Positions 5,504 through 9,807 of a stretch of DNA of 64,000 nt are shown one piece after another. The notes under the pieces were generated by a model, which was given only the letters and a program-made list of their open reading frames with translations, ran no database searches and was not told the origin of the DNA. The DNA is taken from NCBI GenBank assembly GCA_029262855.1, contig JAJCYP010000123.1, positions 1 to 64,000 of the forward strand. Direction: 5' to 3'. The translations under genes were made by a program, and so were the position numbers. Origin of the DNA: Bacteroidota bacterium (GTDB lineage: Bacteria > Bacteroidota > Rhodothermia > Rhodothermales > UBA10348). Numbering within the stretch: the first letter of the stretch is position 1; the number at the start of each line of letters is the position of its first letter.

Positions 5504-5953
5504 ATGCTCGACTTCATCTTCGATCATCAACACTGGGCAGACCTTCGCACGCTGGAAAGTCTTCGCCAGGATTCCGTGCCCGACGAGGCGCGGCGCCTGT
5601 TTGCGCACGTGATCGGAGCCGAGATCATATGGGCCGACCGGATAGACGGTGTTCCGCAGTCCGGTCCGGTGTGGCCCGAACCAGGAGTGGCAAATACGGT
5701 CGAAGTGATTGAGCGGCTGCATCGACGCTTCTCGGGCTTCCGCAGGACGGATCTCACGCGGGTTGTAAAGTACACCAACTCCAATGGCGATCACTTCGAG
5801 ACCTGCGTTTCCGATATTCTCACCCACGTGGCCCTGCACGGGGCTTACCATCGTGGTCAGGTTGCCCATCTGCTTCGCCAGGCCGGTGCCGAGCCGCAGC
5901 CAACCGACTACATTCAGTTTGTACGCGGCGCCCCTGCTGCCAAGAATCAATAG
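5504..5953 (+). CDS. DinB-superfamily (DfsB) metal-dependent protein
   Basis: 149 residues starting at the ATG at 5504. The protein has the four-helix DinB/YfiT fold pattern: an N-terminal HQHWADLRTLESL with the first His, LFAHVIGAEIIWADRI with the second, and near the C-terminus HVALHGAYHRGQVAHLLRQ with the H-x3-H metal ligands. The closing TDYIQF is typical of Bacteroidota members. The family binds a divalent metal and includes thiol-dependent transferases; no substrate can be assigned here. It should not be confused with DNA polymerase IV, also called DinB, which is at 24876-25979. The next gene begins 12 bases downstream. Confidence 0.85.
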   Translation: MLDFIFDHQHWADLRTLESLRQDSVPDEARRLFAHVIGAEIIWADRIDGVPQSGPVWPEPGVANTVEVIERLHRRFSGFRRTDLTRVVKYTNSNGDHFETCVSDILTHVALHGAYHRGQVAHLLRQAGAEPQPTDYIQFVRGAPAAKNQ

Positions 5954-5965
5954 ACGCCCTCGCCC

Positions 5966-6610
5966 TTGTCCAAGTCTGCCCCCAATCGAAGCCGCCTGAA
6001 GCGCATCCCGGAGCGCGCATCCTACAACCCCGATGACATCCACGCGATCCTGGATGCCGCCCCCATCTGCCACGTGGCCTTCCAGGTAGATGGTCAACCG
6101 TTTGTAATTCCGACCATTCACGCGAGGCTCGGCAACGAGGTGCTCATCCATGGTGCCAAGGCCAGCCGCCTCCTGAAGCACGCTGCAACGGGAGCGCCAC
6201 TCAGCGTCGCGGTCACAATCCTCGACGCCATAGTGCTGGCGCGATCCGTCTTTCACCACTCCATGAACTACCGTTCCGCAGTTGTTTTTGGGACGGGCCG
6301 CCTCTTGGATGACCCGGAGGAGAAGATGGCTGGAATGCTGGCGATTTCGGAGCACCTTGTCAAGGGACGCTGGGATGATGCGCGGGCGCCCAGTGAGAAG
6401 GAATTCAACGCCACCTCCGTCATCGCCATCAGCATAGACGAGGCCAGCTGCAAGTCCCGGTCTGGACCTCCGGGAGACGAGGATGAGGATTACGCCCTAC
6501 CGGTCTGGGCCGGCCTTCTGCCTCTTCGGCAGGAATGGGGTCCGCTCGAGGCCGACCCCGGCCGGCATTCCGACGTCGCCATCCCCGATTATCTGGAGTC
6601 ATTCGCGTGA
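5966..6610 (+). CDS. Pyridoxamine 5'-phosphate oxidase-like flavin-binding family protein
   Basis: 214 residues from a TTG start. The sequence matches the split-barrel FMN-binding family: RASYNPDDIHAILDAAPICH, VAFQVDGQPFVIPTIHARLG, LIHGAKASRLLKH, then VTILDAIVLARSVFHHSMNYRS, VVFGTGRLL and DEASCKSRSGPP(G)DEDEDY near the end. It is close to the nitroimidazole resistance (NimA)-like or general PNPOx-related group often annotated as flavin-nucleotide-binding protein. It probably binds FMN or F420 in the cytoplasm; its substrate is unknown. Its stop overlaps the GTG of the next gene (GTGA at 6607-6610), so this is the first gene of a four-gene translationally coupled set. Confidence 0.85.
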   Translation: MSKSAPNRSRLKRIPERASYNPDDIHAILDAAPICHVAFQVDGQPFVIPTIHARLGNEVLIHGAKASRLLKHAATGAPLSVAVTILDAIVLARSVFHHSMNYRSAVVFGTGRLLDDPEEKMAGMLAISEHLVKGRWDDARAPSEKEFNATSVIAISIDEASCKSRSGPPGDEDEDYALPVWAGLLPLRQEWGPLEADPGRHSDVAIPDYLESFA

Positions 6611-7200
6611 AGAAGATCCTCGCTATCCTGACCATTCTCGGCATTGGCGCTGCCGTCTACTACCTGAACGGACCCTATATCTTCCCGACCTCCGTGGCCC
6701 TGGGCCCGTGCTGGAAGGACTGGACGAGCCCCTCTTCCTATGAGGTTCGGGCAAGCCCACTAAAGGCGCTCCATTTTACGGTCGGAGACGTGGATGGCCG
6801 CCTGTGTTACGGATCTCCGGAGTCCCGTGGCCGGCGGTTGTTCGGACCCTCGGGCGTAGTGCCGTTCGGCCAATTATGGCGAATGGGTGCCAACGAGCCG
6901 ACCAGGCTGTTCCTGAATGGACCCATCCAGTTTGGTGACCTCAGGTTGGAGGCAGGGCGCTATTCGTTGTACGCCGAGCCAGGAGCCACAACGTGGCGAA
7001 TATTTGCGACCACGTCCATCTGGCACTGGGGCAACCAGATTTCAGCCGAGGTGAAGAACCAGTCGGTGGGCTCCACAGAGGCCCCGGTGGTTCGAAAGGG
7101 GGCGCACGAGGAGTCGCTGCGATTTAAGATGGAGGGCAATGTGCTGGCCATGATGTGGGGATTCACTCGGATCCAGATACCGCTGGCCCCCGCCGGGTAA
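6607..7200 (+). CDS. DUF2911 family exported protein
   Basis: 197 residues from the GTG at 6607. An N-terminal Lys-Lys and hydrophobic helix (residues 4-19) form a signal or membrane anchor. The DUF2911 signature follows: VDGRLCYGSPESRGR, LFGPSGVVPFGQLWRMGANEPTR, FGDLRLEAGRYSLYAEPG, TTWRIFATTSIWHWG. The family is widespread in Bacteroidota, periplasmic, and of unknown function. The gene overlaps its upstream neighbour by 4 bases and its stop codon shares a base with the start of the NhaC gene (TAATG), so all are likely translated from one mRNA. Confidence 0.85.
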   Translation: MKKILAILTILGIGAAVYYLNGPYIFPTSVALGPCWKDWTSPSSYEVRASPLKALHFTVGDVDGRLCYGSPESRGRRLFGPSGVVPFGQLWRMGANEPTRLFLNGPIQFGDLRLEAGRYSLYAEPGATTWRIFATTSIWHWGNQISAEVKNQSVGSTEAPVVRKGAHEESLRFKMEGNVLAMMWGFTRIQIPLAPAG

Positions 7201-8645
7201 TGGCGCAGATCAAATCGACGGTACCCTCGAGCGTGACGTTCGGACAGGCGGCGGCACCGATCGCGTTTCTGCTGGGCATCATCGGCTATGGTCTCGTGGC
7301 AAGACCCCTGTTTCTCGACCAACCCGGATTCCCACTGGAGTTGGTCTTTGTGATGGCGGGTGCCTTCGCCGTGGCTCATCTCCGCTATCTCGGGTACTCC
7401 TGGCTGGACATCCAACAGTCAGTGGTGTCCAGGCTGGCCAAGGCGATGCCGGCCATCTTCATTCTCTTTGCGATTGGACTGCTGATTGCATCCTGGATGG
7501 TTTCGGGGACCATTCCGATGCTGGTCTACTACGGGATTGCCATTATCCGCCCGGAGGTTCTCTACCCGCTGGCCTTCCTGGTCCCGGTGGTCTTCTCGAC
7601 CCTGACCGGGACATCCTGGGGCTCTGCGGGCACCATCGGAGTCGTAATCATGGGCGTCGGAGTGGCGTCCGGGGCCAACCCTGGAATTCTTGCGGGTGCG
7701 ATTATTGGCGGAGCCTACTTCGGGGACAAGCTGTCCCCGCTGTCGGATACGACGAACCTCGCCGCCCTCGGGGCAGGGGTCGAGCTCTACGACCACATCC
7801 GCTCGATGCTCTGGACCACCGTCCCCTCCGCGGTGATCGCGTTGACACTCTATGCAATCCTGGGGCTGATGAATCCGCCCCAGGCCACGGTTTCCACGGC
7901 GGATGCCGAGGCCTTCTCGGCCGCGCTCGACGAGATGTTCAACTTCAGCTTCCTTTTGCTGCTCCCGCCGGCTTTGGTGCTCTGGGGCTCACTGAAGCGA
8001 TACCCGACGATTCCCGTCCTGATCGGGTCGGTGATATTGGCCTCCCTCCTTGCGATCGTACTCCAGCCGTTTACGCTGGCCGACATCCTATTCTCTGTCC
8101 GCGACGGATTCAATGCCGAAATGGCTACGTGGATGCCGTCGGTCCCGGAAGGGGTGCGAACTCTGGTCGACAGGGGTGGCCTGTACTCGATGAGGGAGGC
8201 CATCTTCACGGCATTTCTGGTGTTCTTCTTTATCGGTGCCATCGACCTCATCGACGCCATGCCGATTGTGGTGAACCGGGTATTCCGATTCGCGAAGACC
8301 CGATCAGCCACCATTCTTTCGGCCCTGGGTGCCACGGCGGTGACCAACGCGATGACGTCCAACCAGTACGCCACGAGTTTCATTGTGGGGGACGCGTTTC
8401 GGCGCCGGTTCGATGAGCTCGGCATTTCGCGCCGGGTGCTTTCCCGCTCCCTGGAGGATACCGGAACGATGCTGGAGAGTCTGGTGCCATGGCACGCGAC
8501 GGCCCTCTTTATGGTCGCAACGCTGGGCGTTCCAGTAGCCGACTACTGGTACTGGCAGTTCCTGTCCCTGGCGAATTTCATTGTGGCGCCGGTCCTGGCG
8601 ATTACGGGGATTGGGTGCTTCTACAACAGCAAGTCCGATGCGTGA
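7200..8645 (+). CDS. NhaC-family secondary transporter (Na+/H+ antiporter family; possible methionine transporter)
   Basis: 481 residues with about 11-12 hydrophobic helices. Family markers include LIASWMVSGTIPMLVYYGI, TGTSWGSAGTIGVV, GGAYFGDKLSPLSDTTNLA, TNAMTSNQYATSFIVGDAFR and EDTGTMLESLVPWHATALF, all conserved across NhaC/MleN/MetT transporters. The family exchanges or co-transports Na+ or H+ with small substrates. The gene starts in the stop of DUF2911 (TAATG) and its end overlaps the ATG of a Cys/Met-metabolism lyase by 8 bases. Since MetT-type NhaC proteins are methionine transporters, this coupling suggests that a sulfur amino acid, rather than only Na+/H+, is the cargo. That last step is inference. 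Confidence 0.88.
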   Translation: MAQIKSTVPSSVTFGQAAAPIAFLLGIIGYGLVARPLFLDQPGFPLELVFVMAGAFAVAHLRYLGYSWLDIQQSVVSRLAKAMPAIFILFAIGLLIASWMVSGTIPMLVYYGIAIIRPEVLYPLAFLVPVVFSTLTGTSWGSAGTIGVVIMGVGVASGANPGILAGAIIGGAYFGDKLSPLSDTTNLAALGAGVELYDHIRSMLWTTVPSAVIALTLYAILGLMNPPQATVSTADAEAFSAALDEMFNFSFLLLLPPALVLWGSLKRYPTIPVLIGSVILASLLAIVLQPFTLADILFSVRDGFNAEMATWMPSVPEGVRTLVDRGGLYSMREAIFTAFLVFFFIGAIDLIDAMPIVVNRVFRFAKTRSATILSALGATAVTNAMTSNQYATSFIVGDAFRRRFDELGISRRVLSRSLEDTGTMLESLVPWHATALFMVATLGVPVADYWYWQFLSLANFIVAPVLAITGIGCFYNSKSDA

Positions 8646-9807
8646 CGACACCCTTCTGAACCTGGATCCGAGGCATCCCTACGGCGCCGCAGCGCCACCG
8701 CTGCATCAGACATCGACATTCGGGTTCGAGAGCTGGGAGGCCATCGACGCCGCGTTCGACGACCGCGCCGGCACCCCCATCTACTCCCGCCAACTGAATC
8801 CGACCGTACAATTGGCGGAGTCCAAGCTGGCCGCTCTTGCGAGGGCCGAATCAGCGCGCCTGTTCGGCAGCGGGATGGCCGCCATCAGCGCGGCCATTCT
8901 GCACTGCGTGGGGACTGGCGATCACATCATCACCATCAAGAACGTCTACGGCCCGGCGGCCAACTTCATGGCGTCCTATCTCCCGCAAAAGACGGGTGTG
9001 ACGACCAGTTTTGTGGCGGGTGATGTCGGCGATTTCGATGGTGCCTGGACCGACCGTACCAAACTGGTCTATCTGGAGTCTCCCTCATCGGCCGTGTTCG
9101 GGCTTCAGGACATCGAAGCCATCTCCCGACTGGCCCACGCCCGCGGCGCACGCGTCGTGGTTGACAACACCTGGGCGACGCCCGTTTTCCAGAAGACGCT
9201 GGCCATGGGGGCGGATTTGGAGGTCCACAGTGCTTCCAAATACCTCTGCGGCCACTCCGATGTGGTAGCCGGCGTGGTTCTTGGCTCGAAGAAGGACATG
9301 GATGCCATCGCGGTCAACGAGGGCGAATTGCTGGGGGCCAAGATGGCGCCTTTCGAGGCGTGGCTCCTGCTCCGAAGTCTGCGCACCTTGACCGCCAGAC
9401 TCGACCGCCATCAGGCGAACACCGCGCGAGTGGTCGACTTCCTGGACCGGCATCCGGGGATCAGCCTTATTCGATACCCGGGGCTCGCATCTTACCCCCA
9501 GGCCGACCTCGCCCGACGTCAGATGACCGGCTTTACGGGGCTTCTGGCGTTTCGCCTGGCAACTGCCGACCTCGCGTCCGTCAAACGCTTCTTCGACGCG
9601 CTGAAGATCTTCAACCGGGCGGTGTCGTGGGGCGGCCACGACAGCCTTGTGTACGCTCCGGCCATCAGTTATGCCAAGGAGCATCCCCCCGAGCGATTTG
9701 CCGAGATGGGGATCTCCGTGGGCGACATCCGCATTTCCGTTGGACTCGAGGATCCTGAAGACCTCATTGACGACCTTGACCAGGCCCTGAGCACGCTCGA
9801 TCACTGA
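8638..9807 (+). CDS. Cys/Met metabolism PLP-dependent enzyme (cystathionine gamma-synthase / methionine gamma-lyase family)
   Basis: 389 residues, the family's normal length. The start ATG at 8638 overlaps the stop of the transporter gene. Markers: the N-terminal PLHQTSTFGF, YSRQLNPTV, FGSGMAAISAAIL (phosphate-binding loop), YLESPSSAVFGLQDIEAI, VVDNTWATPVFQ (Asp contacting the pyridine N), and HSASKYLCGHSDVVAGVV with the Schiff-base lysine in SASKY. The enzymes carry out gamma- or beta-elimination or replacement on cystathionine, homocysteine or methionine. Sequence alone cannot separate synthase from lyase. The transporter partner favours a catabolic C-S lyase acting on an imported sulfur amino acid; this is inference. 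Confidence 0.88.
   Translation: MRDDTLLNLDPRHPYGAAAPPLHQTSTFGFESWEAIDAAFDDRAGTPIYSRQLNPTVQLAESKLAALARAESARLFGSGMAAISAAILHCVGTGDHIITIKNVYGPAANFMASYLPQKTGVTTSFVAGDVGDFDGAWTDRTKLVYLESPSSAVFGLQDIEAISRLAHARGARVVVDNTWATPVFQKTLAMGADLEVHSASKYLCGHSDVVAGVVLGSKKDMDAIAVNEGELLGAKMAPFEAWLLLRSLRTLTARLDRHQANTARVVDFLDRHPGISLIRYPGLASYPQADLARRQMTGFTGLLAFRLATADLASVKRFFDALKIFNRAVSWGGHDSLVYAPAISYAKEHPPERFAEMGISVGDIRISVGLEDPEDLIDDLDQALSTLDH

What the first reader, a model, noticed from the sequence alone, without database searches (positions are those of the whole stretch)
7200..9807. NhaC-family transporter coupled to a C-S lyase
The stop of the NhaC gene overlaps the start of a Cys/Met-metabolism PLP enzyme by 8 bases. 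MetT of Shewanella is a NhaC-family methionine transporter. The pair suggests import of methionine or a related sulfur compound followed by elimination to a volatile thiol, rather than Na+/H+ exchange. Two upstream genes (PNPOx-like, DUF2911) overlap as well.
Basis: partly seen in the sequence, partly recalled or inferred. Interest (0 to 1): 0.5.

Follow-up and report, generated by a model that had tools for sequence, protein, structure and literature searches.

The report
Transporter paired with C-S lyase-like enzyme
Two overlapping genes, a probable amino-acid transporter and a vitamin-B6 enzyme, form a pair that recurs in many distantly related bacteria; it probably imports an amino acid and splits or flips it, but not in the methionine-degrading way first suggested.

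Summary
The coupling reaches well beyond this genome. Of 43 loci carrying the enzyme's clade, 37 have an NhaC-family gene nearby (31 directly upstream, 5 upstream at 0.5-2.3 kb, 1 downstream); none of 11 loci with more distant relatives has one. No other neighbour recurs in more than 4 of 46 loci, so the unit is the pair; PNPOx-like and DUF2911 are local.

The enzyme is neither methionine gamma-lyase (joint clade rejected, p-AU 9e-70) nor cystathionine gamma-synthase. It lies on the side of the tree with E. coli MetC (beta-lyase/alanine racemase), TM1270 (Ala/Glu racemase) and the epimerase VbsL, all with Trp where the other side has Leu. Its invariant Pro106 matches the MetC proline that favours beta-elimination over racemisation. 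The transporter is far from the one MetT stand-in I could test and scores nearest to plasmid NhaCs beside MalY/PatB C-S lyases. Most likely: import of a cysteine-type amino acid, then beta-elimination; racemisation is the main rival. Precedent: Fusobacterium megL-metT. New variant of a known kind.

The parts
7200..8645 (+). NhaC-family transporter, 481 aa; proposed amino-acid importer of the pair
   Evidence: PF03553 149 bits; TIGR00931 392.9 bits over cut-off 370; predicted model pLDDT 87.9, matches MleN and IT-superfamily transporters
8638..9807 (+). PLP enzyme of the Cys/Met family, 'SWG' type, 389 aa; proposed beta-C-S lyase or racemase. Tyr104, Pro106, Trp179, Lys201 (PLP lysine), Trp331, Arg365
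   Evidence: PF01053 366 bits; tree and residues; model pLDDT 89.7
8638..8645 (+). 8-base overlap ATGCGTGA of the NhaC stop and the enzyme start
   Evidence: sequence
6607..7200 (+). DUF2911 gene, GTG start; overlaps NhaC by one base; seen beside the pair only in the three genomes of this genus
   Evidence: PF11138 93.5 bits; cluster c10 in 3 of 46 loci
5966..6610 (+). PNPOx-like gene (PF12900), TTG start; passenger, also beside the pair in G001, G002 and G005
   Evidence: PF12900 136 bits; cluster c11 in L040, L043, L064 (the window copy was displaced there by a longer antisense ORF)
5504..5953 (+). DinB-family gene, first of the same-strand run; not part of the module
   Evidence: PF05163 56.6 bits

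Best explanation
A two-gene import-and-process module. The NhaC-family protein, whose predicted fold is that of the IT superfamily of organic-ion transporters, brings in an amino acid, probably coupled to Na+ or H+. The co-translated PLP enzyme forms an external aldimine with its PLP (bound to Lys201), removes the alpha proton and, with Tyr104 held by Pro106, eliminates the beta substituent. A cysteine-derived substrate (cysteine, cystine, cystathionine or another S-conjugate) would give a thiol, pyruvate and ammonia. Shown here: gene overlap, conserved pairing, exclusion from the methionine gamma-lyase clade, residue signature, predicted fold of the transporter. Inferred: the substrate, the direction of transport and beta-elimination as the main reaction.
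For: Pairing: NhaC beside the enzyme in 37 of 43 loci and in 0 of 11 loci of 36-39% relatives; no other gene cluster in more than 4 of 46 loci. The two proteins' distances correlate over 35 pairs (r 0.70; 0 of 2000 permutations reach it). Partner swap: Brachyspira's enzyme is 65-67% identical to its four nearest in the set, but its adjacent NhaC is at most 37%, and the order is reversed. Convergence: NhaCs on Escherichia, Serratia and Vibrio plasmids (31-39% identical) sit beside MalY/PatB genes, with 8-base overlaps in two of the four records read; MalY of L. sakei has beta-lyase and racemase activity (PMC5845896, passages). Enzyme: the split that puts it with MetC, 9iz5 (TM1270), VbsL and a Phyllobacterium enzyme against 28 other rows has support 100/99 (100/99 again in a 69-row rebuild without MetC). 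Trp331: 44 of 44 on its side, 0 of 28 on the other. Pro106, 40 of 40, aligns with MetC Pro113, whose replacement raised alanine racemase and lowered beta-lyase activity (PMC5025676, passages); 9iz5 has Trp and VbsL Asp there. Transporter model: MleN Z 47.5 (rmsd 2.9, 462 aligned), NaS1 Z 23.4 (rmsd 4.0, 407), AtDiT1 and LaINDY Z 22.0.
Against: Six of 43 loci lack an adjacent NhaC: L049 starts at a contig edge, and L082, L085, L089, L095, L097 show none. Deleting metT in F. nucleatum did not change H2S. Named members on the enzyme's side of the tree include racemases or epimerases (9iz5; VbsL). Identity to methionine gamma-lyase (40.9%) is close to that to 9iz5 (42.9%), and by structure methionine gamma-lyases rank slightly above 9iz5 (Z 53.6 against 52.5). 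Pro at this place also occurs in 9 of 10 MGL-like rows of the other side. No model cut-off is reached among the 25 NCBIfam models shown of 50. The tree is unrooted; MetC and 9iz5 are long branches. No sulfur riboswitch in 36 related loci or the window at gathering score. TIGR00931 names the transporter NhaC.
Confidence: 0.5

Rival explanations
1. Amino-acid racemase module: the transporter moves a D- or L-amino acid (Ala, Glu, Met or another) and the enzyme interconverts the enantiomers, for D-amino-acid use or release.
For: Best PDB hit by sequence is 9iz5, named L-alanine/L-glutamate racemase and titled TM1270. NF041088 is the top NCBIfam model, 402.7 bits. VbsL, called acyl-hydroxyornithine epimerase (PMC12971057, passages), is on the same side of the tree. 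MalY-type enzymes can racemise.
Against: Below the NF041088 cut-off of 629. Pro106 is the beta-lyase state of MetC Pro113, unlike Trp in 9iz5 and Asp in VbsL. The genome has its own alr over cut-off. MurI over cut-off is missing in relatives with and without the pair, so the pair does not track a D-Glu need.
Confidence: 0.28
2. Methionine importer plus methionine gamma-lyase releasing methanethiol, as in F. nucleatum megL-metT.
For: megL-metT operon precedent. TIGR01328 345 bits. Top structural matches by Z are methionine gamma-lyases.
Against: AU test rejects a clade with the three methionine gamma-lyase rows, p 9.12e-70. Cys116 replaced by Pro in 40 of 40, Lys240 and Asp241 not kept. Scores under the cut-offs of 549.7 and 666. 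The SAM-riboswitch-operon NhaC is distant. No SAM riboswitch found near the pair.
Confidence: 0.12
3. True Na+/H+ antiporter that merely neighbours a PLP enzyme; the overlap is ordinary operon packing.
For: TIGR00931 cut-off passed, 392.9 over 370. NhaCs at 34-36% identity in five genomes of the order stand without such an enzyme.
Against: Pairing kept across phyla while other neighbours change; partner swap in Brachyspira; NhaC relatives beside arginine deiminase, tyrosine decarboxylase, arginase and MalY genes.
Confidence: 0.07

Closest known systems
Fusobacterium nucleatum megL-metT operon
   Same: A Cys/Met-family PLP enzyme co-transcribed with a gene called methionine transporter (PMC9600241, passages); the gene next to megL by locus tag is listed as NhaC family (PMC9239216, passages)
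   Different: MegL is a methionine gamma-lyase; the window enzyme is excluded from that clade (the Fusobacterium sequence itself was not in the tree). Order is enzyme then transporter. The F. nucleatum transporter sequence was not at hand to compare.
NhaC-MalY/PatB pairs on Escherichia, Serratia and Vibrio plasmids
   Same: NhaC beside a MalY/PatB PLP gene, with 8-base overlap in the Escherichia and Serratia records; three of these NhaCs score highest with the pair's profile outside its own clade
   Different: The enzyme is annotated as a different PLP family, and gene order varies. I saw no paper on this pairing (10 of 66 shown in one search listing).
TM1270 (PDB 9iz5), L-alanine/L-glutamate racemase; recalled as a Thermotoga maritima cystathionine beta-lyase with Ala and Glu racemase activity
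   Same: 42.9% identity, Ser161/Trp189/Trp341 signature in methionine gamma-lyase numbering, fold
   Different: Trp instead of Pro beside the catalytic Tyr; the window enzyme is below the NF041088 cut-off; gene neighbours of TM1270 not examined
E. coli MetC (cystathionine beta-lyase, also annotated alanine racemase)
   Same: Same side of the tree, same SWG signature, same Tyr-x-Pro motif
   Different: 31% identity and a very long branch
Methionine gamma-lyase
   Same: Fold (Z 53.6, rmsd 1.9, 387 aligned); PLP lysine and Tyr59/Arg61/Tyr114/Arg375 equivalents
   Different: Specificity residues and clade

Membership tests
Methionine gamma-lyase (TIGR01328 / NF005695) | Curated score cut-off | tested here: not met
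   345 of 549.7 bits; 347.8 of 666 bits
Methionine gamma-lyase (TIGR01328 / NF005695) | Cys116, Lys240, Asp241 (recalled as its specificity residues) | tested here: not met
   Pro in 40 of 40; position 240 variable; 241 Glu in 31 of 40
Methionine gamma-lyase (TIGR01328 / NF005695) | Groups with methionine gamma-lyases | tested here: not met
   p-AU 9.12e-70, lnL 106.5 lower, against three rows (1gc0, a Ruegeria gene so annotated, one over the TIGR01328 cut-off)
Cystathionine gamma-synthase | Groups with E. coli MetB and passes a synthase cut-off | tested here: not met
   On the other side of a 100/99 split; named synthase models among the 25 shown give 235-287 bits against cut-offs of 505-690
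Ala/Glu racemase model NF041088 | Curated score cut-off | tested here: not met
   402.7 of 629 bits, though the highest-scoring model
SWG-type group (MetC, TM1270, VbsL; name made up here) | Trp at position 341 and Ser at 161 (methionine gamma-lyase numbering); same side of the tree | tested here: met
   Trp 40 of 40, Ser 39 of 40; split 100/99
E. coli-type cystathionine beta-lyase (TIGR01324) | Curated score cut-off | tested here: not met
   238.6 of 365.9 bits
beta-C-S lyase by activity | beta-elimination of a cysteine conjugate | not testable with these tools
   needs enzyme assay
NhaC (TIGR00931) | Curated score cut-off | tested here: met
   392.9 over 370 bits
NhaC (TIGR00931) | Na+/H+ antiport activity | not testable with these tools
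   needs transport assay
MetT (methionine NhaC) | Groups with MetT proteins | tested here: inconclusive
   One stand-in only (SAM-riboswitch operon, Bacillus sp. SD088): 67 bits with the pair's profile against 676-814 for the 25 loci that made it, and very long branches between
MetT (methionine NhaC) | SAM riboswitch near the gene, as in Gram-positive metT (gammaproteobacterial metT is MetJ-controlled; PMC2940859 and PMC3228920, passages) | tested here: not met
   None at gathering score in the window or in 36 related loci; MetJ boxes not tested

The most novel reading that the evidence does not exclude
NhaC-type transporters are interchangeable import halves of a recurring amino-acid module that has joined PLP enzymes of at least three kinds independently (gamma-lyase MegL, MalY/PatB, and this SWG-type enzyme). 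The SWG-type pair is a widespread unassigned pathway for a specific non-protein or D-amino acid, or cysteine conjugate, spread between phyla as a unit.
Probability: 0.4. Interest if true: 0.55.

Novelty: new variant of a known kind. Interest (0 to 1): 0.4.

Why it matters
If this pair is an amino-acid import-and-cleave (or racemise) module, the labels 'Na+/H+ antiporter' for the transporter and 'methionine gamma-lyase' or 'cystathionine gamma-synthase' for the enzyme would both be wrong for this clade, with consequences for models of thiol and sulfide release, D-amino-acid use and sodium homeostasis. The repeated pairing of NhaC with different PLP enzymes makes the substrate question directly testable with two genes in a laboratory strain.

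Tried and rejected
Sulfur riboswitches near the pair: none in 36 loci plus the window; the matches were tRNA, tmRNA, Bacillaceae-1 and DUF805b RNA. What lies between separated partners: a DUF4143 ATPase on the opposite strand in L068 and an unknown 166-aa gene in L083, no called ORF in L069; these look like unrelated insertions. Flanks of pair-less copies, examined in L095, L085 and L097 only: L095 has GntR, acetyltransferase, SAM hydrolase-type and cobalt-ABC genes; no obvious replacement transporter. Idea that the enzyme replaces MurI as D-Glu source: MurI over cut-off is missing in 27 of 28 genomes, with and without the pair. Structure does not separate methionine gamma-lyase from 9iz5 (Z 53.6 and 52.5). 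CPA-type antiporters (NHE1, NhaP) appear among the transporter's fold matches only over about 50 residues at Z 5.1 and 4.1; told here as a weak sign. A paper on TM1270 was not found by search and a DOI I recalled is not held, so its beta-lyase activity is recalled. Results that do not fit an amino-acid role for every NhaC: of 12 plasmid records read, Cetobacterium (sulfotransferase, SLC13 permease), Parabacteroides (tandem NhaC, dicarboxylate symporter), Peptoclostridium (IclR, MarR, ABC; a PLP aminotransferase two genes upstream) and V. scophthalmi (unknown protein) show no clear substrate.

Rows left out before counts: L064 and L065 (same genomes as L041 and L044). L049 (partial), L076 and L082 (enzyme split into two frames) are in the pairing count but not in the enzyme tree. 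The enzyme tree used 13 of the 30 MGL-like loci, 4 of the 11 distant loci, and 5 of the 10 lower-identity loci. The NhaC tree used 26 of the 37 paired loci. The distance test used 35 of 37. Of 155 plasmid records with NhaC I read 12.
Full report
What is there. The NhaC-family gene runs 7200-8645 and the Cys/Met-metabolism PLP gene 8638-9807, sharing the 8 bases ATGCGTGA. Upstream on the same strand lie a DinB-family gene, a PNPOx-like gene and DUF2911; PNPOx/DUF2911 overlap by 4 bases and DUF2911/NhaC by 1.

Is the pair real? I looked for both proteins in 60 genomes, the window's own included. In its family (27 genomes) the enzyme at 56% identity or more occurs in 10 and NhaC at 60% or more in 11; every enzyme-bearing genome has NhaC, the odd NhaC is cut by a contig end, and 16 genomes have neither. 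A scan of named genomes gave 46 loci. I merged these with the family loci, dropped two duplicates and set apart 11 loci of 36-39% identity. That left 43 loci of the enzyme's clade: NhaC lies directly upstream in 31 (one cut by a contig end), upstream at 0.5-2.3 kb in 5, and downstream in 1 (Brachyspira); one enzyme starts at a contig edge and is uninformative; 5 have no NhaC nearby (L082, L085, L089, L095, L097). None of the 11 distant loci has NhaC within the stretch held. In a gene clustering of 46 loci the enzyme is in 41, NhaC in 37 and no other cluster in more than 4, so the conserved unit is two genes. DUF2911 was seen beside the pair only in this genus, PNPOx-like also in G005.

Coupled evolution. 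Pairwise distances of the two proteins correlate over 35 pairs (r 0.70, 0 of 2000 permutations). Shared descent of the hosts contributes to this. Yet the gammaproteobacterial copies group with the window's genus and the verrucomicrobial copy with two genomes of its family, for both proteins (enzyme tree; NhaC tree, with one of the three gammaproteobacterial copies; nearest neighbours), which suggests transfer as a unit. In Brachyspira the enzyme stays 65-67% identical to its four nearest relatives, while the neighbouring NhaC is at most 37% and sits on the other side: the transporter was probably exchanged for another NhaC.

What the enzyme is. By sequence the best solved structure is 9iz5, named L-alanine/L-glutamate racemase and titled 'Multifunctional PLP-dependent enzyme TM1270'. 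Methionine gamma-lyases follow closely. None of the 25 NCBIfam models shown (of 50) reaches its cut-off; NF041088 (Ala/Glu racemase) is highest (402.7 of 629), TIGR01328 and NF005695 (methionine gamma-lyase) 345 of 550 and 348 of 666, named cystathionine gamma-synthases 235-287. In a 72-row tree the window enzyme lies in a 40-row clade (99/84). One split with support 100/99 puts it with E. coli MetC, 9iz5, VbsL and a Phyllobacterium enzyme, against 28 rows that include methionine gamma-lyases, E. coli MetB and three of the genome's other paralogues. Without MetC and two other long rows the split is again 100/99. Holding the clade together with three methionine gamma-lyase rows costs 106 log-likelihood units (p-AU 9e-70). 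The root is unknown, and MetC and 9iz5 are long branches, so I claim the side of the split, not a clade.

Residues. Trp at position 341 (methionine gamma-lyase numbering) is found in 44 of 44 rows on this side and 0 of 28 on the other; Ser161 behaves likewise (43 of 44, one Thr, against Asn in 28 of 28). PLP-binding and carboxylate-binding residues are kept (Tyr59, Arg61, Tyr114, Lys211, Arg375 equivalents), while Cys116 is Pro in 40 of 40 and Lys240 and Asp241 are not kept. That Pro aligns with Pro113 of E. coli cystathionine beta-lyase; four replacements there raised alanine racemase 1.7- to 5.7-fold and lowered beta-elimination 3- to 16-fold (PMC5025676, passages). 9iz5 has Trp there and VbsL Asp. 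Nine of ten MGL-like rows of the other side also have Pro, so this is a hint and not a proof. Together the data favour chemistry at C-alpha and C-beta over gamma-elimination, and beta-elimination somewhat over racemisation. Ordinary transsulfuration is likely covered elsewhere in the genome: a paralogue on contig C86 passes a cystathionine gamma-synthase cut-off (524 over 513).

What the transporter is. It passes the NhaC model TIGR00931. Its predicted model (pLDDT 87.9) matches MleN in an integrative MleN-MetQ model (Z 47.5, rmsd 2.9, 462 residues) and then sulfate, dicarboxylate, phosphate and arsenite transporters (NaS1 Z 23.4, rmsd 4.0, 407 residues). Of 12 plasmid relatives read, four annotated ones (Escherichia, two Vibrio species, Serratia) sit beside a MalY/PatB gene; an unannotated Proteus record has an aminotransferase class I/II ORF directly upstream; others sit with arginine deiminase genes (ArcD), tyrosine decarboxylase and arginase/ornithine cyclodeaminase; four show no clear substrate. 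Five NhaCs of 34-36% identity in other families of the order have no such enzyme beside them. An NhaC-family gene in a SAM-riboswitch operon of Bacillus sp. SD088, with one other ORF between riboswitch and gene, is the nearest stand-in for MetT that I could obtain; it is far away in the tree. That tree has very long branches and the pair's clade has 85/100, so only the distance is used.

Mechanism. Import of an amino acid by NhaC, then processing by the PLP enzyme. The common ground of the PLP partners seen with NhaC-family genes (MegL from the literature; MalY/PatB and the SWG-type enzyme here) is beta-elimination of cysteine-type substrates, with racemisation as a known side or alternative activity of MetC and MalY. 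I put beta-C-S lyase at 0.5, racemase at 0.28, methionine gamma-lyase at 0.12 and unlinked Na+/H+ antiport at 0.07.

Novelty. A lyase-NhaC operon is known in F. nucleatum (passages; both genes also appear in regulation tables, passages). Deleting metT there did not change H2S. I saw no paper on the pair described here or on NhaC-MalY pairs in four search listings (20 of 79, 5 of 5, 7 of 7 and 10 of 66 shown); the library lacks most subscription journals. New variant of a known kind, interest 0.4.

Noticed in passing
L140 2710-4002 and 3995-5446; L141 3977-6625; L142 3989-6605; L174 2932-5570: Plasmids of Escherichia coli, Vibrio and Serratia carry an NhaC gene beside a MalY/PatB gene, with 8-base overlaps in the E. 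coli and Serratia records; the Vibrio and Serratia ones have an adjacent LacI or MarR regulator.
   Followed up: partly
L081 5947-8580: Brachyspira pilosicoli carries the same enzyme with a different NhaC downstream instead of upstream: a probable partner exchange.
   Followed up: yes
whole genome G000 and 27 relatives: Glutamate racemase (TIGR00067) over cut-off in only 1 of 28 genomes (weak matches in 8 more), although alr is over cut-off in 27 of 28; the D-glutamate source is unexplained and not linked to this pair.
   Followed up: partly
window 7200-8645: The best fold match of the transporter is MleN in an integrative model with the protein MetQ (PDB 9a59).
   Followed up: no
L072, L075, L091, L078: Gammaproteobacterial and verrucomicrobial copies of both genes group with copies of the window's family, suggesting transfer of the pair between phyla. 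All four are metagenome bins, so misbinning is possible.
   Followed up: partly
L173 4394-5230: A 278-aa gene without any Pfam match overlaps a Vibrio scophthalmi plasmid NhaC by 8 bases: perhaps another partner.
   Followed up: no
L076 5950-7128; L082 6001-7179: The enzyme gene is split into two frames in these two genomes: decay or sequencing error.
   Followed up: no
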